From NCBI RefSeq assembly GCF_014773395.1, contig NZ_JACXAF010000002.1, positions 1-41,346 of the forward strand: a stretch of 41,346 nucleotides of DNA, given 5' to 3'. How positions within the stretch are numbered: the stretch's first letter is position 1; the number at the start of each line of letters is the position of its first letter. The notes beneath the pieces were generated by a model. The model saw nothing but the letters and a program-made list of their open reading frames with translations. It did not search any database and had not been told where the DNA came from. The position numbers and the translations under genes are program-made. The stretch is from Neiella litorisoli. Lineage in GTDB: Bacteria > Pseudomonadota > Gammaproteobacteria > Enterobacterales > Neiellaceae. Positions 30,389 through 41,346 of the stretch are shown piece by piece.

Positions 30389-30871
30389 CTAGCTGCCATT
30401 ATATGGCTCAAGTGGCAACTCTGTTTTATCAATTACTTTTCTTAATACAAAACTGGAATGGACGCCGGTGACTCCTTCGATGCGGGTTAAGCGGCCAAGC
30501 AAGAATGCCTGATAGTAATCCATGTCAGGTACCACAACGCGTAACAAGTAGTCGGCGGATTGACCGGTCACAATGTTGCATTCGATGACTTCAGGGAAAT
30601 CGCCAATGATTTTTTCAAAATTGGCAAAGCGCTCAGGGGTATGGCGGTCCATGGAAACCGACAAAATCACCGTGAGTTTCAGCTCGAGTGCTTCTTGGTC
30701 AAGTAGCGTCACGTGTTTTTTGATGATGCCACTTTGTTCTAGCCGTTTTACTCGGCGCGCGCATGGCGTTGGCGACAAGCCAATTTTCTCCGCTAGCTCA
30801 AGGTTGGAGATACGGCCATTTTGTTGCATCTCGGCCAAAATCAGTTTGTCGTAGCGATCAAGCTTGAGCAT
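30389..30871 (-). CDS. Lrp/AsnC family transcriptional regulator
   Basis: 160 residues. The N-terminal helix-turn-helix is complete: LDRYDKLILAEMQQNGRISN, LELAEKIGLSPTPCARRVKRLE (about 3-60). The RAM ligand domain follows, with VTGQSADYLLRVVVPD. Members sense amino acids and act locally or globally. A 17-bp palindrome 57 bases upstream may be its own site. It is divergent from the nifH region, and the gap of about 580 bases also holds a terminator and possible small RNA. Confidence 0.92.
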   Translation of the reverse strand: MLKLDRYDKLILAEMQQNGRISNLELAEKIGLSPTPCARRVKRLEQSGIIKKHVTLLDQEALELKLTVILSVSMDRHTPERFANFEKIIGDFPEVIECNIVTGQSADYLLRVVVPDMDYYQAFLLGRLTRIEGVTGVHSSFVLRKVIDKTELPLEPYNGS

Positions 30872-30927
30872 TGGGCAATACCTTTAATGTTGAACAAAGA
30901 GTGAAATAGATCTCAATTTCTTATTTC

Positions 30928-30944
30928 GTAGTTATACTAACTAC
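30928..30944. promoter_or_regulatory. Palindrome upstream of the Lrp-type gene (possible autoregulatory site)
   Basis: GTAGTTA and TAACTAC flank the central TAC, giving perfect 7-bp arms in an A/T-rich setting. It is 57 bases upstream of the ATG at 30871, as expected for Lrp-family self-control; binding is not shown. Confidence 0.4.
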
Positions 30945-31004
30945 TAATTTATTATTTAGTGGCTAATTAACCTAATTTGTTAGCTAAATAGTGTGATCTT
31001 TAGT

Positions 31005-31262
31005 GCCACTCGCTCAAACTTTCTGCCTACACTAAGTCCACATCAAAAATCTCAGCTAATTGGTTACCCCAAGCGCTGAGAAGCCAAACGGATGATGTGG
31101 TGCAGACGGCTCAAAAGGTTAGTTGAATCCAACTCATCCAATGCTTCAAAAGAGCATTAGGCAAACGTTTCGAAGCATAAGCCGCCACATGGCCTCTGTG
31201 TTCACCGTAGCGCCCCTCTGATTTCAAACCCGCAGCATGGACTGCGGGTTTTTGCTTTTTTG
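31005..31262 (+). ncRNA. Candidate small RNA or orphan leader ending in a terminator before nifH
   Basis: No coding frame lies here, yet a strong terminator stands at 31227-31253: AACCCGCAG pairs with CTGCGGGTT around CATGGA, then TTTTTG and TTTTT. It is oriented rightward, so some transcript should end there. Upstream are further hairpins, AGTTG/CAACT around AATC and AATGCT/AGCATT around TCAAAAG. The 5' end is a guess. It may be a small RNA or the remains of a displaced gene. Confidence 0.4.
31227..31260 (+). terminator. Rho-independent terminator upstream of the nifH promoter
   Basis: Nine-bp GC-rich stem (31227-31235 with 31242-31250), a six-base loop and a T-rich tail on the plus strand only. 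It insulates nifH from leftward transcription. Confidence 0.8.
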
Positions 31263-31274
31263 CTGCAAATTGTT

Positions 31275-31290
31275 TGTGTTGATTACGACA
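31275..31290. promoter_or_regulatory. NifA upstream activator sequence for nifH
   Basis: TGTGTTGATTACGACA fits TGT-N10-ACA and lies about 104 bases upstream of the nifH -24 element. The bases between are A/T-rich, as needed for bending, but no good IHF match was found. Confidence 0.7.
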
Positions 31291-31384
31291 AAAGCCCTCC
31301 ATTTGTTGTGGCTTCGTCGGTCATTGATCTATTTCGAAATTAATAAATCGAATAAAAACAATAGGTTATTTTGTTGTGTGATCT

Positions 31385-31400
31385 TGGTGTGGTTTTCGCA
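31385..31400 (+). promoter_or_regulatory. Sigma-54 (-24/-12) promoter of nifHDKTY
   Basis: TGGTGTGGTTTTCGCA has GG and GC 10 bases apart; the -12 half is TCGCA rather than TTGCA. Transcription should begin near 31411, about 40 bases before the ATG. Confidence 0.68.
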
Positions 31401-31426
31401 CTGTCCTAATCGGGAACCGTTTTTAA

Positions 31427-32329
<903 letters not shown>

Positions 32330-32362
32330 GCGACTGAGCAAGCAAACCTGCCACTAGACAAA

Positions 32363-32376
32363 CTTCTCAGGAGAAG
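32363..32376 (+). other. Hairpin covering the nifD ribosome site
   Basis: CTTCTC and GAGAAG are perfect complements flanking AG. A realistic form has CTTCT/AGAAG with the loop CAGG, so the AGGAG ribosome site lies in the loop and stem just before the ATG at 32380. Confidence 0.4.
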
Positions 32377-32379
32377 ACT

Positions 32380-33846
32380 ATGTCAATGGATAAAGCTGAA
32401 ACTCAGGCGCTCATCAGTGAAGTGCTTGAGGTTTACCCAGACAAGGCGAAAAAAGATCGCCTGAAACATTTAACGGCAAACGATACGGAGCAAGCAGGCA
32501 AGAAGTGTGTCACTGCAAACCGTAAATCTTTGCCTGGTGTAATGACTGCCCGTGGTTGTGCCTACGCCGGTTCTAAAGGTGTGGTATGGGGCCCAATCAA
32601 GGACATGGTGCATATTTCCCATGGTCCAGTTGGCTGTGGTCAGTACTCACGTGCGGGTCGTCGTAACTACTACACCGGTATGACCGGCGTGAATAGCTTC
32701 GGCACCATGAACTTCACCTCTGACTTCCAAGAGCGTGACATCGTATTCGGTGGTGACAAGAAACTGTCGGCCATTGTTGATGAAATCGAAACCCTGTTCC
32801 CGCTGAACAAAGGTATTTCGATTCAGTCGGAGTGTCCGGTTGGTTTGATTGGTGATGACATCGAAGCCGTTGCTAAAGGCAAAGGCGCTGAAATCGGTAA
32901 AACCATCGTGCCGGTACGTTGTGAAGGTTTCCGCGGCGTCAGCCAGTCATTGGGTCACCACATTGCTAACGATACCTTGCGTGACTACGTACTGGATAAG
33001 TCAGAAGACAAAGAGATTGAAACAACCCCGTATGACGTTGCCATTATCGGTGACTACAACATCGGTGGTGACGCTTGGTCTTCTCGTATTCTGCTTGAAG
33101 AAATCGGTCTTCGCGTAGTGGCTCAGTGGTCTGGTGACGGCACCATCGCCGAGCTGGAAAACGGCCCGAAAGTGAAGCTGAACCTAATCCACTGTTACCG
33201 TTCAATGAACTACATCTCACGTCATATGGAAGAAAAATATGGTGTGCCATGGATGGAGTACAACCTGTTCGGCCCAACCAAGTGTGAAGAGTCGCTGCGT
33301 AAGATTGCTGCTTTCTTCGACGAAACCATTCAGGCCAAAGCGGAAGAAGTCATCGCTAAGTACCGCCAGCAATGGGAACCCATCGTTGCCAAGTACAAGC
33401 CACTATTGGAAGGCAAGAAAGTCATGCTGTACGTCGGTGGTTTACGCCCTCGTCACGTGATTGGCGCCTACGAAGATCTGGGTATGGAAATTGTTGGTAC
33501 CGGCTATGAATTTGCCCACAACGATGACTACACCAAGACCATTCCTGAAGTGAAAGATGCCACTTTGATTTACGACGATGTCACCGGCTATGAGCTGGAG
33601 AAATTCGCCGAAAAACTCAAGCCAGATCTAATCGGCGCGGGTGTCAAAGAGAAGTACATCTTCCAGAAAATGGGCGTGCCTTTCCGTCAGATGCACAGCT
33701 GGGATTACTCAGGTCCTTACCACGGCTTTGATGGCTTCGCTATCTTCGCTCGCGATATGGACATGACGTTGAACAACCCTTGCTGGGACAAGCTCACCGC
33801 CCCTTGGAAAAAGTCTGAGGAAGCTGAGCTGGCAGAAGCGGTTTAA
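32380..33846 (+). CDS. nifD: Nitrogenase molybdenum-iron protein alpha chain
   Basis: 488 residues. P-cluster ligands are Cys60 (ARGCAYAG), Cys86 ([10 protein letters not shown]) and Cys152 ([11 protein letters not shown]). FeMo-cofactor is held by Cys272 (IHCYRSMNY) and His439 ([14 protein letters not shown]). It forms the alpha2beta2 enzyme with NifK and contains the site that reduces N2. GGAG precedes the ATG at 32380; a second ATG two codons later is possible. It lies 50 bases after nifH, with a hairpin across its ribosome site. Confidence 0.98.
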
Positions 33847-33947
33847 GCCTCGCTTTGGCAAGTAGAACACTGAATTGAGCGCATTGCGCTTATGTGTATC
33901 ACTCAACCCGTCTGTTCACAGATGAGTGGCGCGGGAGGAGAAAGAAA

Positions 33948-35519
33948 ATGAGTCAATCAGTAGAAGATATCAAACCGGGTTATCCGTTATTCGGCCAGCC
34001 GGAATATCAGGACATGATCGCCCGCAAACGCGAAATGTTCGAAGAAGGTCATGACGCCGAGAAGGTCAAAGAAGTATTCGAATGGACCACGTCCGAAGAA
34101 TACAAAGAGCTTAACTTTGCTCGTAAGAGCCTCACCATCAACCCAGCAAAAGCGTGTCAACCATTGGGCTCTGTGCTTTGTGCCTTGGGTTTTGAAAACA
34201 CCTTACCTTATGTGCATGGCTCGCAAGGTTGTGTGGCTTATTTCCGCACTTACTTTAACCGTCACTTCAAAGAGCCTGTGGCGTGTGTCTCGGACTCAAT
34301 GACCGAAGATGCAGCGGTATTTGGTGGCCAGAAGAACATGTTCGATGGTCTGCAAAACTCGCTCGCACTTTACAAGCCAGAAGTCATCATGGTGTCGACC
34401 ACCTGTATGGCTGAGGTAATTGGTGATGACTTGAACGCCTTTATTGGCAACGCTAAAAAAGAAGGCTACATCCCAGAAGATTTACCAACACCATTTGCTC
34501 ACACGCCAAGCTTTGTTGGCAGCCATGTGACTGGCTGGGACAACATGTTTGAAGGTGCTGCTCGCTACTTCACCTTGAACTACATGGAAGACAAAGAAGT
34601 TGGTAGCAATGGCAAAATCAACTTAGTGCCTGGCTTTGAAACGTATCTGGGTAACTACCGTGTGATGCATCGCATGATGCAAGAAATGGGTGTTGATTAC
34701 AGCTTGCTGTGCGATCCAAGTGAAGTATTGGATACACCAGCAGACGGCGAATATCGCATGTACGCAGGCGGCACGCCAATTGCGGAAATGAAAGATGCGC
34801 CAAACGCCAAAACCACCATTTTGTTGCAACCAGACCAATTGGTGAAAACCAAGAAGTTTATCACTAACACGTGGAAGCATGACGTACCGGCGACCAATAT
34901 CCCAATGGGCTTGGATTGGACCGATGAATTCCTGATGACGATTTCAGAAATCAGCGGCAAAGAGATCCCAGAATCATTGGCCAAAGAGCGTGGTCGTTTG
35001 GTTGACATGATGACCGACTCACACACTTGGTTGCACGGCGTTAGCTTCTCTATCTACGGCGATCCAGATTACCTGTTGGGCTTGACCAAATTCCTGCAAG
35101 AGTTGGGTTGTGAAGTGAAGCATATTCTTGCCAACAACGGTAACAAACGCTGGCGCAAGAAGATGGAAGCATTGATCGCTGAAGCGCCTGGTACGGCTGG
35201 TGCCGAAATCCACATTGGTAAAGACTTGTGGCATTTCCGTTCGCTGGTATTCACCAACAAGCCAGACTTCATGATTGGTAACTCGTACGCCAAGTTTATT
35301 CAGCGCGATACCAAAGCCAAAGGTGAAGAGTTTGAAGTACCTCTGATCCGCTTGGGCTTCCCAATCTTTGATCGTCACCATCTGCATCGCAACACCACAT
35401 TGGGTTATGAAGGCGGCATGTACATGCTGACCACCTTGGTTAATTCAGTGCTTGAGAAGTTGGACGACGATACTCGCAAGATGGGTAAAACCGACTACGG
35501 CTACGACTTGGTGCGTTAA
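33948..35519 (+). CDS. nifK: Nitrogenase molybdenum-iron protein beta chain
   Basis: 523 residues from the ATG at 33948, which follows GGGAGGAG; the frame opens at 33894 without a site. P-cluster ligands Cys70 (KACQPLG), Cys95 (SQGCVAYFR) and Cys153 (TTCMAEVIGDD) have the same numbers as in Azotobacter vinelandii NifK, and the length is the same. It pairs with NifD. The 304-base gap to nifT holds a 13-bp hairpin and a structured repeat. Confidence 0.98.
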   Translation: MSQSVEDIKPGYPLFGQPEYQDMIARKREMFEEGHDAEKVKEVFEWTTSEEYKELNFARKSLTINPAKACQPLGSVLCALGFENTLPYVHGSQGCVAYFRTYFNRHFKEPVACVSDSMTEDAAVFGGQKNMFDGLQNSLALYKPEVIMVSTTCMAEVIGDDLNAFIGNAKKEGYIPEDLPTPFAHTPSFVGSHVTGWDNMFEGAARYFTLNYMEDKEVGSNGKINLVPGFETYLGNYRVMHRMMQEMGVDYSLLCDPSEVLDTPADGEYRMYAGGTPIAEMKDAPNAKTTILLQPDQLVKTKKFITNTWKHDVPATNIPMGLDWTDEFLMTISEISGKEIPESLAKERGRLVDMMTDSHTWLHGVSFSIYGDPDYLLGLTKFLQELGCEVKHILANNGNKRWRKKMEALIAEAPGTAGAEIHIGKDLWHFRSLVFTNKPDFMIGNSYAKFIQRDTKAKGEEFEVPLIRLGFPIFDRHHLHRNTTLGYEGGMYMLTTLVNSVLEKLDDDTRKMGKTDYGYDLVR

Positions 35520-35539
35520 TTAAGTCATACCGAATGGCG

Positions 35540-35578
35540 AGGAAGAGAACAGGAATGATCAGCCCCTGTTCTCTTCCT
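35540..35578 (+). other. Perfect long hairpin just after nifK
   Basis: GGAAGAGAACAGG (35541-35553) pairs base for base with CCTGTTCTCTTCC (35565-35577) around 11 bases; one more A-T pair extends it. No T-run follows, so it more likely protects the nifHDK message from exonucleases than ends transcription. Confidence 0.7.
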
Positions 35579-35685
35579 ACGTTAATTCACTGGATTGCAT
35601 ATTTCTGAGTTGACACAGGGTGAATTCAAGCGTGAACAAAACGCCGAGAAATCATTCCTAAAATGTCAGCAACATACTGACAGAC

Positions 35686-35787
35686 GCGGAATGGAAAGCT
35701 AAGCATCAAGCATCCGCTGCATGGAGGCAGCGGCTGAGTATCCACGGAAGGATTCACTACGTCTTGTTGCTTAGCTTTGCATTTCGC
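35686..35787 (+). repeat. Structured repeat R1 between nifK and nifT
   Basis: Outer arms 35686-35705 and 35768-35787 pair over 20 positions with one mismatch and one G-U. Inside are two hairpins: CCGCTGC/GCAGCGG with the loop ATGGAG, and ATCC/GGAT with the loop ACGGAA. The two GGA loops are 23 bases apart. The same layout with other stem sequences is seen at 36061 and 41094. Loops of type ANGGAN are the kind bound by CsrA/RsmA; that role is inferred. Confidence 0.75.
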
Positions 35788-35823
35788 AGAACGAACAAAG
35801 CGATAAAACAAAAGGAACCCGAC

Positions 35824-36036
35824 ATGCCAAACGTCATGATCCGCAAAGAAGCCGATGGCGCGTTGTCGTGCTACATCGCCAAGAAAGATTTAGAAGAGGC
35901 CATTGTGGCCATTGAATTTGATGAGCCAGAGCGTTGGGGCGGCGAAATCGAACTGGCCGATGGCACCAGTTATTACATTGAGCCGTTGGATGGTGAGCCG
36001 AAATTACCAATGACCATGCGCGCCAGAAGGGCTTAA
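35824..36036 (+). CDS. nifT: NifT/FixU family protein
   Basis: 70 residues from the ATG at 35824 (AAAGGAA upstream), starting MPNVMIRKEADGALSCYIAKKDLEE. RWGGEIELADG and YYIEPLD near the end are the NifT pattern. The small protein has a minor or unknown role in nitrogenase maturation. It is flanked on both sides by copies of the structured repeat, so its segment of the message may be handled separately from nifHDK. Confidence 0.92.
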   Translation: MPNVMIRKEADGALSCYIAKKDLEEAIVAIEFDEPERWGGEIELADGTSYYIEPLDGEPKLPMTMRARRA

Positions 36037-36060
36037 TAACGCAAGGGTTGAGCTTGGTGT

Positions 36061-36166
36061 GAACGGAATCAAATGTGAGCCAGCATGCATCCGCTGCAGG
36101 GAAGCAGCGGCTGAGCCATCAGGGATGATTTCACGGCGTCTTGCTGGATTACATTTGATTCCGCTC
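36061..36166 (+). repeat. Structured repeat R2 between nifT and nifY
   Basis: Outer arms 36061-36085 and 36142-36166 pair over 25 positions with two mismatches and one G-U. Inner hairpins are CCGCTGC/GCAGCGG with the loop AGGGAA and ATC/GAT with the loop AGGGAT; GGA to GGA is 23 bases. The outer arm sequence is unrelated to that of R1, but pairing is kept. Confidence 0.75.
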
Positions 36167-36239: not shown

Positions 36240-36932
36240 ATGACCACCACGTTATCAAATGCAGCCATATCTGAATCCGTTGCTTTACGGCTGGCACTTG
36301 CTGCTAAGGCTGTGCCGCAATTACAACTGGCGACCTTGGTGACCACCTTAGTCAGTCAATTGGGTGAGGTATTAACTGAGAAAAAGCTGCGTTCAATCTC
36401 CCCCAAGCAATTGCGCACTTGGTTCAGCGAAGATTTACCTGCGCAGATTGAGCCGCCTGATCGGGTGCAACTGGCACAAGTTCATGCAGTCCTGACCGGC
36501 GAAGAAGTTGCCACTATGGAAGCGCCAGAAGTAACGGCCACTGAGCCGCTTGCTGGGCCTAAGGTGAAGGTGGCGGTGACTTCCAATAATCAGCAGCAAA
36601 TCGATGGCCATTTTGGTTCTTGCCTGCGGGTTTTGGTCTATGAAGTCAATGCCGACTCTTGGCAACTAGTCGATGTCCGCCCCGTCACTTGCACCGCCAG
36701 TGGCGATGCTCGAACCAGCTTCATGATTGAGCTGCTGGCCGATTGTCAGATCTTGTCGACCTTATCGATTGGTGGCCCAGCCGCTGCCAGAGTGACGCGC
36801 GCCAATGTTCACCCGCTAAAACAAACAACACCTGCCGATGCCGATTTGATGCTCAGTCGTATTCGCCAAGTGATGCATGAAGGGCCGCCGCCATGGCTGA
36901 AAAAAGCCATTAGTGAAAACCAGTCAAACTGA
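36240..36932 (+). CDS. nifY: NifY/NafY-type FeMo-cofactor carrier
   Basis: 230 residues. The N-terminal 90 residues form the helical apo-NifDK-binding domain (LRSISPKQLRTWFSEDLP). The remainder (about 110-215) is a NifX-like cofactor-binding domain with VAVTSNNQQQIDGHFGSC and ILSTLSIGGPAAARVTR. NifY proteins hold FeMo-cofactor or stabilise apo-nitrogenase until insertion. CAGGAGG precedes the ATG. It lies 203 bases after nifT and 20 before the next gene. Confidence 0.9.
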   Translation: MTTTLSNAAISESVALRLALAAKAVPQLQLATLVTTLVSQLGEVLTEKKLRSISPKQLRTWFSEDLPAQIEPPDRVQLAQVHAVLTGEEVATMEAPEVTATEPLAGPKVKVAVTSNNQQQIDGHFGSCLRVLVYEVNADSWQLVDVRPVTCTASGDARTSFMIELLADCQILSTLSIGGPAAARVTRANVHPLKQTTPADADLMLSRIRQVMHEGPPPWLKKAISENQSN

Positions 36933-38674: not shown

Positions 38675-38828
38675 TTGGCGTCATGGCTGCATTTTGCAAT
38701 GTTACAGTTTGTTACGTTGTTGACAGTTAACCATGTGATCGCGCGCAAATTTTAACTGCGATATTTGTCGCAGTCTATTGCTCCCTGCTCGATACCCACG
38801 ACGAGCTCATTATTATCCGGAGAAAAGC

Positions 38829-41069
38829 ATGTTCAATGCTGTCAAATTAAAATCACTGTTGGTGTGCTCTGTGGCGGTGTTAACTGCCTGCGCAGCTCAC
38901 GATAAAGCAACAACTGCGGCAGTGCCGACCAACCCCACCATTGAAGCAATCCTTGCCGATTTAACCCTTGAAGAGAAAGCTGGCCAGCTAAATCTGATTA
39001 ACTTTGAAGGCGAGTTAGGCGAAACCCATTACCAAATGATTCGTGACGGTAAGGTGGGTAGCTTGCTGAAATCGAATGGTGCGGCGCAAAACCTCAAGCT
39101 TCAGAAAATTGCTGTGGAGCAATCTCGCGCTGGGGTGCCGATTTTATTTCAAGAAGATGTCATCCACGGTTACAAAACCATTGCGCCAATTCCATTAGCT
39201 GAAGCGGCTAGCTGGGATATTCCTGCCATTCAACAATCCGCTGCGATCGCCGCTCGCGAAGCTTCGGCTGGCGGTATTCAGCTGACTTATGCACCGATGG
39301 TCGACATGAGCCGAGATCCGCGCTGGGGCCGAATTATCGAAGCCGCCGGTGAAGATCCATACTTGGCGAGTCTGGTCGCTGCCGCGCGAGTAAAGGGCTT
39401 TCAGGAGTCAGGTGAGCCGGGCCAAAACATCCTCGCTACGGTCAAACATTTTGCTGGTTATGGCGCATCGCTGGCAGGGCGTGATTACAACATTCAGGAT
39501 CTAAGTGAGCGTGAACTGCGCGAGGTGCATTTGCCACCATTTAAAGCGGCGGTTGATGCCGATGTCGCGGCGGTGATGGTTGCTTACACTGCCCATGATG
39601 GGGTGCCGTTAACGGCAAATCAGTACATGGTGCAAGGCGTTCTGCAAGGTGATTTGGGCTTTAACGGTTTGATCATGACCGACTGGGCCACCATTTATAA
39701 CTTAGAGCGTGCCGGAGTCTCAGCAAATGCTGAAGATGCCACGATTACCGCAATCAATAACAGTATTCACATGGATATGGCGGCGAAGAAGTATGTGGAG
39801 TTACTGCCGCAGTTGGTGCGCGATGGCAAAGTTGATGAACGTGTGGTCGACGATGCCGTGCGTCAGGTGCTGATGCTCAAATACAAAGCTGGGCTACTGC
39901 AAGACCCTTATGGTCGACTGAATGAAGCGACTGAAAAAGCGGAATTGCTATCGGCAGCAAACCTTGCCGCCACCAAAGAGATGGCTCTGAAGAGTATGGT
40001 GTTGCTGAAAAATGATCAGCAGACTTTGCCAATCTCTGACAAGGTTCAGAGAATTGCCGTGATCGGCCCATTTGCCAATGCCCAAAAAGATCTGATGGGT
40101 TGGTGGCCGGGGTTGGGCGAAGCCAAAGATGTGGTGTCCATCATGGCGGGCTTGGAAGCTGAGTTTGGTGATTCGGTTGAGCTGACTTATGCCCAAGGCG
40201 TGACCATTGACCGCTTTAACAAAGCCGGCGCTGAGTTGATCCCAGAGGCGGTGAAAGCGGCAGAGCAGGCCGACATGGTGATCATGGTGTTGGGCGAGAA
40301 GGAATGGATGAGTGGTGAAGGCGGTGGTACAGCGTCACTACACCTACCTGGGCTGCAAGAAGAGCTATTGCAAGCTGTTGCTAAAACCAATAAGCCAATT
40401 GCAACTGTGATTGTCTCTGGCCGTCCGTATGTTTTGACAGATGTGGCGAAGCATTCCGACGCGTTATTACAGGCGTGGATGCCGGGTACAACCGGCGGCA
40501 CTGCGGTTGCGGAAATTTTGTCGGGTAAGTTCAATCCGCAAGCGAAATTGCCAGTGACATTCCCGCAGCATCAGGGGCAAGTTCCGATTTTCTATAGCTA
40601 CAAGAAAACCAGTCATCCGTTTGTTGCTGGGATCACCGAAGATCGCTACACCACTACCTATCGCGATGCGCCCCATGAGCCGCTATATCCATTTGGCTTT
40701 GGCTTGAGTTATACCAACTACAGCTATTCTGACATTGAGCTGAGTAGTGCCACCATGACCATGGATGGCTCAATCACTGCGTCAGTGGATGTGACCAATA
40801 CGGGGGATGTGGCAGGGCGTGAAATCGTCCAGTTGTATCTTCACGACAAAGTGGCATCAGTGGTGCAACCGGTCAAACTGCTGAAAGACTTTACCATTCT
40901 CGATTTGTCTCCGGGTGAGACTAAGCGTGCTGAGTTTGTCATCAGCAAAGACAAGTTGGCGTTTGTTGGTATTGACTATCAGCCCACCATTGAAGCCGGC
41001 GAATTTGAGCTGTTTATCGGAGCGAGCTCTGATGATGTGAAATCGACTGAGTTCACTTTGGTGGAATAA
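38829..41069 (+). CDS. Glycoside hydrolase family 3 beta-glucosidase, lipoprotein
   Basis: 746 residues from the ATG at 38829 (GGAG upstream); the frame opens at 38778 without a site. A lipoprotein signal ends at LTAC-AAH, so the enzyme is anchored in the outer or inner membrane. Domain 1 is the GH3 TIM barrel (VDMSRDPRWGRIIEAAGEDP, TVKHFAGYG) with the nucleophile Asp285 in MTDWATI. Domain 2 is the alpha/beta sandwich (MVLLKND, GEKEWMSGEGGG), which supplies the acid/base, and a fibronectin III-like domain ends the protein (DVTNTGDVAGREIVQLYL). It is expected to cleave beta-linked glucosides from plant or algal glycans. Confidence 0.95.
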   Translation: MFNAVKLKSLLVCSVAVLTACAAHDKATTAAVPTNPTIEAILADLTLEEKAGQLNLINFEGELGETHYQMIRDGKVGSLLKSNGAAQNLKLQKIAVEQSRAGVPILFQEDVIHGYKTIAPIPLAEAASWDIPAIQQSAAIAAREASAGGIQLTYAPMVDMSRDPRWGRIIEAAGEDPYLASLVAAARVKGFQESGEPGQNILATVKHFAGYGASLAGRDYNIQDLSERELREVHLPPFKAAVDADVAAVMVAYTAHDGVPLTANQYMVQGVLQGDLGFNGLIMTDWATIYNLERAGVSANAEDATITAINNSIHMDMAAKKYVELLPQLVRDGKVDERVVDDAVRQVLMLKYKAGLLQDPYGRLNEATEKAELLSAANLAATKEMALKSMVLLKNDQQTLPISDKVQRIAVIGPFANAQKDLMGWWPGLGEAKDVVSIMAGLEAEFGDSVELTYAQGVTIDRFNKAGAELIPEAVKAAEQADMVIMVLGEKEWMSGEGGGTASLHLPGLQEELLQAVAKTNKPIATVIVSGRPYVLTDVAKHSDALLQAWMPGTTGGTAVAEILSGKFNPQAKLPVTFPQHQGQVPIFYSYKKTSHPFVAGITEDRYTTTYRDAPHEPLYPFGFGLSYTNYSYSDIELSSATMTMDGSITASVDVTNTGDVAGREIVQLYLHDKVASVVQPVKLLKDFTILDLSPGETKRAEFVISKDKLAFVGIDYQPTIEAGEFELFIGASSDDVKSTEFTLVE

Positions 41070-41093: not shown

Positions 41094-41199
41094 GCGATAG
41101 CAAACCTCGCAACTTGCTGCTTCAGGCGGCATGGATGCCGCATGCAGAGCGACACAAGGATGTGCTTGAGCGTCAGCATGGGGTGAGGTTTGCTCTCGC
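41094..41199 (+). repeat. Structured repeat R3 after the GH3 gene
   Basis: Outer arms 41094-41119 and 41174-41199 pair over 26 positions with four mismatches and one G-U, and their sequence is unlike R1 and R2. Inner hairpins are GCGGC/GCCGC with the loop ATGGAT and CAC/GTG with the loop AAGGAT; GGA to GGA is 25 bases. The second hairpin, ACAAGGATGT, matches the core of the known CsrA binding consensus. Confidence 0.7.
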
Positions 41200-41254
41200 A
41201 GTTGTTCGCGAATGCTGTTTGCTTCTGGTGAGAAATCTTCGCCGCTTGCGAGCT

Positions 41255-41323
41255 GTCTCGTCGAGACGCCGTAAATACTTTGCTGGCGGGCTCCTGCCCT
41301 CTGCAAAGCCCCGCTCCGGCGTC
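41255..41323 (-). repeat. Second type of structured element, minus strand
   Basis: On the minus strand, GACGCCG pairs with CGGCGTC as an outer stem, CTTTGC with GCAAAG as a middle stem, and GGGC with GCCC around AGGA as an inner hairpin. A small hairpin GTCTC/GAGAC follows at 41255-41267. The phrase TTTACGGCGTCT resembles TTTCACGGCGTCTT in R2, so it may be a distant relative. The window ends 23 bases later. Confidence 0.5.
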
Positions 41324-41346
41324 CTGCCTGCGCGACAACTTAATAA

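What the first reader, a model, noticed from the sequence alone, without database searches (positions are those of the whole stretch)
35686..36166. Twin structured repeats flank nifT, each presenting two ANGGAN hexaloops
R1 (35686-35787) and R2 (36061-36166) share a layout: an outer stem of 20-25 pairs, then two hairpins with six-base loops. All four loops read ANGGAN. The outer stems differ in sequence yet stay paired, and the two GGA motifs are 23 bases apart in both. Covarying stems around fixed loops point to a selected RNA. CsrA/RsmA dimers bind GGA in such loops and can bridge two sites at about this spacing. In the nif operon these elements could couple nitrogenase message fate to the Gac/Csr system or act as a sponge.
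Basis: partly seen in the sequence, partly recalled or inferred. Interest (0 to 1): 0.8.

Follow-up and report, generated by a model that had tools for sequence, protein, structure and literature searches.

The report
Dispersed twin-GGA-loop RNA hairpin repeats
The two repeats beside nifT belong to a family of about 150 small RNA-like hairpins scattered through this marine bacterium's genome, each showing two loops of the kind that the global regulator CsrA binds; the family is a variant of a catalogued but uncharacterised RNA class, and its role is untested.

Summary
R1 and R2 are as described: a 25-27-pair outer stem and two hairpins with ANGGAN hexaloops, GGA motifs 23 bases apart. They are not special to nif. 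A covariance model finds 118 copies in this Neiella genome (capped search) and 154 in the stretches fetched, many in BIME-like arrays of alternating strand. Related elements occur patchily across Gammaproteobacteria (69 of 369 genomes, own included). In 56 copies from other genomes the structure covaries strongly. In 21 orthologous pairs with N. marina, one-sided stem changes keep G.U 40 times and make A.C 3 times; loop changes hit N2/N6 15 times, G3 twice and A1/G4/A5 never. So one strand is selected, most simply as RNA. Architecture and Rfam scores place it beside TwoAYGGAY (RF01731), in the same Rfam clan as CsrB; a 2014 paper already proposed that TwoAYGGAY binds CsrA, unvalidated there. 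This genome encodes a near-identical CsrA. A nif-specific role is not supported: in N. marina R2 is reduced to an arm beside an antisense element, and single copies show no sense bias. Best reading: dispersed CsrA-binding decoy RNAs that behave like REP repeats. Binding and expression remain untested.

The parts
35686..35787 (+). R1: complete class A element between nifK and nifT
   Evidence: fold; CM R1 match 96.6 bits (R1 is one of the 19 sequences that built the model)
35686..35710 (+). R1 outer stem, 5' arm
   Evidence: pairs with 35763-35787
35711..35736 (+). R1 hairpin 1, loop ATGGAG at 35721-35726
35738..35760 (+). R1 hairpin 2, loop ACGGAA at 35744-35749, 5-nt bulge UUCAC on its 3' side
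35763..35787 (+). R1 outer stem, 3' arm
36061..36166 (+). R2: complete class A element between nifT and the next ORF (36240-36932)
   Evidence: fold; CM match 36063-36164, 96.5 bits (also one of the model's 19 sequences)
36088..36113 (+). R2 hairpin 1, loop AGGGAA at 36098-36103
36115..36137 (+). R2 hairpin 2, loop AGGGAT at 36121-36126
   Evidence: comparative pairing; not in the minimum-energy fold
41095..41198 (+). R3: class B element (104 nt) after ORF 38778-41069 (GH3-like by recall, no family search run); loops ATGGAT and AAGGAT
   Evidence: CM match 53.8 bits, fold, GGA at 41133/41158
41243..41346 (-). R4: 3' part of a further element on the opposite strand, with the loop-2 insert, cut off by the contig end
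   Evidence: read by eye from the reverse complement; no CM match
35824..36036 (+). nifT, the gene between R1 and R2
   Evidence: Pfam NifT 90.6 bits

Best explanation
R1 and R2 are two copies of a dispersed structured RNA element, a gammaproteobacterial variant of the TwoAYGGAY class. When an intergenic copy is transcribed in its sense, the RNA folds into a stem of about 25-30 pairs with free sequence, capped by a three-way junction that holds two ANGGAN hexaloops 23-25 nt apart. Each pair of loops would be bound by one CsrA dimer. The many copies together act as small decoys (or local landing sites) for CsrA; positions are interchangeable, and copies are lost, replaced and multiplied in REP/BIME-like arrays. 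Shown: structure, covariation, copy number, strand-specific selection, loop conservation, CsrA gene present. Inferred: transcription, CsrA binding, decoy function.
For: Covariation: 19 own copies 92.8% of cells paired, score 0.750 against 0.216 shuffled; 56 copies from other genomes 96.9%, 1.007 against 0.200. Strand-specific selection: outer-stem G.U against A.C 68:6 (27 own copies after removing near-duplicates) and 60:10 (64 copies from other genomes); 40:3 for one-sided changes from or to Watson-Crick in 21 orthologous pairs, plus 8 two-sided WC-to-WC changes. Loops: over 131 copies A1, G3, G4, A5 are nearly fixed while N2 and N6 vary; loop 2, not specified in the retrieval pattern, is ANGGAN in 71 of 84 matches. 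Of 53 own matches of 104-105 nt (taken as class B), 53 and 51 keep A.GGA. at the two loops. RF01731 matches a relative's copy at 44.0 bits (cut-off 43) and own copies up to 36.5; CsrB is in the same clan CL00106. CsrA found in 63 of 64 good-quality genomes with the element. Own CsrA is almost identical over residues 1-58 to chain 1y00_A, named carbon storage regulator.
Against: No expression or binding data. CsrA is nearly as common in good-quality genomes without the element (65 of 72; Fisher p 0.07), and one good-quality genome has the element without a detected CsrA (G234). Singles between two genes of the same direction lie sense in 13 and antisense in 19 cases among 76 clusters in other genomes, and about 6 to 5 in this genome, so many are not simple parts of sense mRNAs. 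Conserved features outside the loops (5-nt bulge, junction bases, stem length) are more than generic CsrA binding should need (inference). CsrB matches do not track with the element: 7 of 11 carriers and 17 of 29 non-carriers, and own CsrB-like candidates exist, so a further sponge is not required. Besides G.U and A.C there are other outer-stem mismatches: 78 and 89 cells, 15 one-sided WC-to-mismatch changes.
Confidence: 0.55

Rival explanations
1. A REP/BIME-like mobile DNA hairpin: the structure is recognised as single-stranded DNA by a mobilising enzyme, and the loops are protein-recognition marks for transposition, not for CsrA.
For: About 150 copies, intergenic, alternating-strand arrays; patchy: 0 in one congener, 68 in another; no sense bias; turnover at conserved sites; related copies at separate places: five G106 copies share flanks, two G128 copies share the inner stem, and in G354 the element sits in an identical 217-bp unit with terminal inverted repeats and short direct repeats.
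Against: Resident orthologous copies show purifying and compensatory change, not the decay expected of dead copies. G.U far exceeds A.C, which fits RNA better than DNA, though no DNA control was measured. The single Y1 transposase gene has no element in its fetched locus. Three high-scoring G122 copies share mainly the core (66-92 bp at 80-89%).
Confidence: 0.2
2. A 3'-end or intercistronic RNA processing and stability element: the long stem is cut by RNase III or blocks exonucleases, setting the ratio of nifHDK to downstream messages.
For: R1 lies after nifK and R2 just after nifT; clusters often follow a stop codon closely; stem length is tightly about 25-31 pairs.
Against: Does not explain invariant GGA loops or the element-strand bias in antisense copies (G.U:A.C 21:3 in 18 copies); no sense bias.
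Confidence: 0.13
3. One reading: R1 and R2 couple the nif message specifically to Gac/Csr.
For: Both are sense to the operon; R1 is conserved in N. marina with one change at a free loop position.
Against: The family is genome-wide; R2 is lost in N. marina, where an antisense element sits. The nif region is 97% identical overall, so R1 conservation says little.
Confidence: 0.06

Closest known systems
TwoAYGGAY RNA (Rfam RF01731; Weinberg 2010, PMC2864571)
   Same: Long poorly conserved outer stem, two adjacent hairpins with AYGGAY-type loops, conserved A between them, UUUAC-like stretch 3' of hairpin 2 (alignments); gammaproteobacteria are among its listed taxa (table row seen).
   Different: Own copies score below the curated cut-off (best 36.5 against 43). 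In the Rfam model the UUUAC stretch is paired in a longer hairpin 2; here it is a 5-nt bulge (read). Loops are ANGGAN rather than AYGGAY. Dispersed high-copy arrays are not mentioned in the passages seen; the 2010 paper's additional files were not seen.
CsrB/RsmZ-type CsrA-sequestering sRNAs (RF00018 and kin)
   Same: GGA motifs in hairpin loops; same Rfam clan CL00106.
   Different: CsrB of E. coli K-12 is one RNA of about 360 nt with many GGA motifs and a terminator; these are 102-104-nt modules with two loops and a 25-30-pair outer stem, in about 150 copies.
REP/BIME elements
   Same: Intergenic palindromes, over 100 copies, alternating orientations in arrays (PMC2817692, start of abstract in the search listing; own data).
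   Different: About 100 nt with a three-way junction and free outer-stem sequence; single-strand-specific compensatory evolution at orthologous sites; no linked Y1 transposase found. REP sequences themselves were not analysed.

Membership tests
TwoAYGGAY RNA (RF01731) | covariance-model score at or above the gathering cut-off (43 bits) | tested here: inconclusive
   one relative's copy 44.0 bits (the same locus was not listed under the stricter gathering filters); 24 own-genome matches at E<=10, all below cut-off, best 36.5; window R1 and R2 not matched at E<=5
TwoAYGGAY RNA (RF01731) | two hairpins with AYGGAY hexaloops on one outer stem | tested here: met
   two ANGGAN loops in nearly all of 131 copies; position 2 is often G or A and position 6 often A, so the motif is broader than AYGGAY
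TwoAYGGAY RNA (RF01731) | tandem-GA in a stem (noted in PMC4333381, passage) | tested here: inconclusive
   a GA/GA internal loop is visible by eye in the subgroup with CGAAGAC/GTCTGAG arms, not in R1 or R2; not counted
CsrA-binding RNA | ANGGAN loops presented on hairpins in a genome with CsrA | tested here: met
   CsrA is nearly as common without the element
CsrA-binding RNA | measured binding to CsrA, lost on GGA change | not testable with these tools
   needs gel shift or CLIP
CsrB/RsmZ sponge sRNA | own promoter and terminator, high expression | not tested
   no expression data and no promoter scan run; by eye R1 has no T-run after its stem
REP/BIME | high copy number, intergenic, alternating orientation | tested here: met
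REP/BIME | association with a TnpA-REP (Y1) transposase | tested here: not met
   one PF01797 gene in the genome, no element in its fetched locus; not tested in other genomes

The most novel reading that the evidence does not exclude
A distributed CsrA titration system: instead of one or a few CsrB-like RNAs alone, these bacteria carry on the order of a hundred interchangeable two-site CsrA decoys that multiply and reshuffle like REP elements, so copy number and read-through transcription set the free CsrA level; possibly a selfish RNA repeat that spread by exploiting, or being tolerated through, CsrA.
Probability: 0.3. Interest if true: 0.82.

Novelty: new variant of a known kind. Interest (0 to 1): 0.62.

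Why it matters
It turns an orphan Rfam motif with a published but, in the text seen, unvalidated CsrA hypothesis into a high-copy, widespread and well-covarying element with clear experiments. If the elements bind CsrA, Csr control in many marine and plant-associated Gammaproteobacteria would include a dispersed layer that gene-based annotation misses. If they do not, they are an abundant RNA-level-selected repeat with an unknown partner that recognises ANGGAN loops.

Tried and rejected
Rfam at gathering thresholds on the window gave nothing; the weak Ysr224 match is on the opposite strand. R1 had no match in plasmids and R2 none in phages (one element per collection), and a hairpin-1 pattern had none in viral contigs. 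Intrinsic terminator: rejected by eye only, no T-run after R1. Integron attC and IS200/605 ends were considered and not pursued: no attC test was run, and the only Y1 gene has no element nearby. CsrA presence and CsrB presence were tried as discriminating tests and are not. A REP control for the G.U/A.C ratio was begun with E. coli K-12 and dropped because REPs are not annotated there; so G.T tolerance in single-stranded DNA was not measured. Replication-strand orientation was not tested. The measure 'further pair types' did not exceed shuffles (125 against 131.2; 492 of 500 shuffles as high), unlike the other four measures.

Rows dropped before counts. Model: 19 of the 24 copies (left out: two disrupted, one with a 1-nt shift, two close to others). 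Own copies in scripts: 150 of the 154 matches (four weak or short ones left out); only ungapped 102-nt matches (59 own; 72 of the 101, 8 of them from Neiella congeners), then one per stem family at 80% identity (27 and 64); 82 of the 101 matches (most Neiella ones left out); stem profile over the 66 of 84 matches without a shift; 45 of the 57 N. marina matches; only equal-length pairs with at least 32 of 50 arm letters equal, which favours conserved pairs; 56 of the 101 matches; 80 non-carriers chosen by handle, not all of them; two tiny genomes (G029, G057) were left out. Class B was set by length (104-105 nt). Three pattern hits in other phyla (L137, L177, L179) lack hairpin 2 and are taken as chance.

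Full report
What is there. R1 (35686-35787) and R2 (36061-36166) flank nifT (Pfam NifT) in the order nifK (named from position and sequence, no family search), R1, nifT, R2, then an ORF with Nitro_FeMo-Co and DIMCO_N domains. Both fold far better than shuffles (z -6.5 and -5.9). Extracting the copies without gaps gives one shared layout of 102 positions: an outer stem of 25 modelled pairs; hairpin 1 of nine pairs with one internal mismatch and a hexaloop; one unpaired A; hairpin 2 with three pairs, a 5-nt 3' bulge (mostly UUYAC), three pairs and a hexaloop; two unpaired bases (mostly GU); then back into the outer stem. GGA motifs are 23 bases apart in R1 and R2 and 25 in R3.

How many. A pattern for hairpin 1, with up to 3 mismatches, finds 17 places in the genome and none with the reversed control pattern. 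A covariance model built from 19 of 24 copies gives 118 matches at E<=0.001 in the whole genome, with 150 of 1542 candidates scored, and 154 matches in 41 stretches of 471,620 bases that include the window. They fall into class A (102 nt, including R1 and R2) and class B (104-105 nt, including R3), which differ in sequence but, by eye, keep the geometry, including a 5-nt bulge. Arrays repeat units of roughly 300 bp with members on alternating strands, for example six matches downstream of a prolyl-tRNA-synthetase-like gene (gene named by recall). Of 50 clusters in this genome none was flagged inside an ORF call of at least 100 aa (ORFs made mostly of elements were set aside); in other genomes 11 of 76 clusters were flagged inside an ORF call, which may be spurious ORFs.

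Where else. Own loci align, mostly at 73-98% identity, to contigs of Neiella marina J221, so I take the window to be from a Neiella species. The element is patchy. Counting the own genome each time: 11 of 40 in the relatives draw, with 0 in one congener and 68 in the other; 69 of 369 genomes of the class; 28 of 398 in a phylum draw, all 28 in the same class.

Is it selected, and as what. In 19 own copies 92.8% of pair cells are standard and 32 of 40 pairs show changes on both sides; score 0.750 against 0.216 for shuffles and at most 0.169 for slid partners. In 56 copies from other genomes the figures are 96.9%, 37 of 40, 1.007 against 0.200 and at most 0.176; the count of further pair types does not exceed shuffles there. 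These 56 were found with the model, or are model matches in loci found by pattern, so some bias towards the structure exists. But in 84 matches found by the hairpin-1 pattern alone, loop 2 is ANGGAN in 71 (GGA in 77), and in the 66 without a length shift the outer stem pairs strongly for 25-28 positions before falling to about the random level near position 30 (same fall in model-found copies). Outer pairs that are not Watson-Crick: G.U 68, A.C 6, other 78 in 27 distinct own copies; G.U 60, A.C 10, other 89 in 64 copies from other genomes. Because the strand is set by the core, a strand-neutral DNA palindrome would give equal G.U and A.C (inference). The sharper test uses resident orthologous copies: in 21 one-to-one pairs between the two Neiella species, one-sided changes between Watson-Crick and G.U number 40, between Watson-Crick and A.C 3, and between Watson-Crick and other mismatches 15; eight positions change on both sides from one Watson-Crick pair to another. 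In the class A loops of these pairs N2 changes in 8 of 26, N6 in 7 of 26, G3 in 2 of 26, and A1, G4 and A5 in 0 of 78. This is what a protein reading A-GGA in a hexaloop would leave. Single-stranded DNA cannot be fully excluded, since G.T is also milder than A.C in DNA (recalled; no control was run).

What turns over. At orthologous sites an element often persists but its identity and strand can change. In one pair (L094/L139) each species keeps a different member of what looks, by eye, like an ancestral inverted pair, with arm remnants of the lost one. At the R2 site N. marina keeps only R2's 5' arm and carries an antisense element. Singles between same-direction genes lie sense 13, antisense 19 in other genomes, plus one far case each, and 6 and 5 here, counted by hand with a sixth antisense case (L110) set aside because a further short match lies near it. 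The G.U excess holds in both groups (14:4 in 16 sense copies, 21:3 in 18 antisense copies). So a cis role in the sense message is not general, and a nif-specific role is not supported.

What it is like. Rfam's TwoAYGGAY matches one relative's copy at 44.0 bits (cut-off 43) and own copies, class B best, up to 36.5 bits. CsrB of E. coli K-12 is in the same Rfam clan. Gardner and Eldai (PMC4333381, passages; author names recalled) proposed that TwoAYGGAY binds CsrA, with validation 'a work in progress'; the Weinberg 2010 table marks it probably an RNA and probably not cis-regulatory (PMC2864571, one passage), while Rfam types it cis-reg. Further passages on TwoAYGGAY concern stability or covariation only (PMC11701678, PMC11661157, PMC7657543). 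Passages on Csr sRNAs of Alcanivorax, Alteromonas and Pseudoalteromonas (PMC9788540, PMC5864184, PMC11882849) describe individually named sRNAs; their sequences were not compared. Searches for TwoAYGGAY, RF01731 and combinations of CsrA with repeat terms showed, in titles and abstract starts, no description of it as a dispersed high-copy repeat; the library lacks most subscription papers. The genome has a CsrA almost identical to chain 1y00_A (that this is the E. coli protein is recalled) and weak CsrB-like matches. CsrA occurs in 63 of 64 good-quality carriers and 65 of 72 good-quality non-carriers, which permits the reading without proving it.

Conclusion. The element is best seen as a high-copy gammaproteobacterial variant of TwoAYGGAY RNA, probably CsrA-binding, whose genomic behaviour resembles REP/BIME repeats. 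How it multiplies is open; one genome shows a copy inside an identical 217-bp unit at two places, with inverted ends and direct repeats of 8 bp (exact at one insertion, 7 of 8 at the other, read by eye).

Noticed in passing
L087 8109-8283 and 8576-8750; L109 4306-4480; L145 (N. marina); window 41278-41346: An extra module of about 73 nt sits between GG and A of the hairpin-2 loop in some copies; it contains a palindrome and, by eye, two small hairpins that again show GGA in their loops.
   Followed up: partly
L260 642-858 and L261 633-849 (genome G354): An identical 217-bp unit with ends ACAGGGC...GCCCTGT, carrying one element, occurs twice with apparent 8-bp target duplications (one exact, one 7 of 8): the element seems to ride in a MITE-like unit.
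   Followed up: partly
L087 7876-7974 +, L207 190-284 -, L206 678-786 -, and others: Rfam Ysr224 (Yersinia sRNA 224) matches the strand opposite to the elements, up to 42.9 bits (cut-off 70), so that sRNA family may be an antisense copy of a related repeat.
   Followed up: no
window 35540-35578: A perfect 14-bp inverted repeat with 11 nt between the arms lies just after nifK, upstream of R1.
   Followed up: no
window 30647-35680: The nifHDK stretch is 97% identical to N. marina while many other compared loci are 73-91% (several, such as parts of L088, L101, L106 and L116, also reach 95-98%), suggesting recent exchange or strong conservation.
   Followed up: no
G000 C5:136, C23:259, C26:197, C27:158, C21:63369, C25:35960, window end: Several elements lie within a few hundred bases of contig ends, so these repeats may break the assembly and be undercounted.
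   Followed up: no
G000 C9:59461-60177: Two neighbouring weak CsrB matches (34.1 and 31.7 bits, cut-off 71) that may be the genome's classical Csr sRNAs.
   Followed up: no
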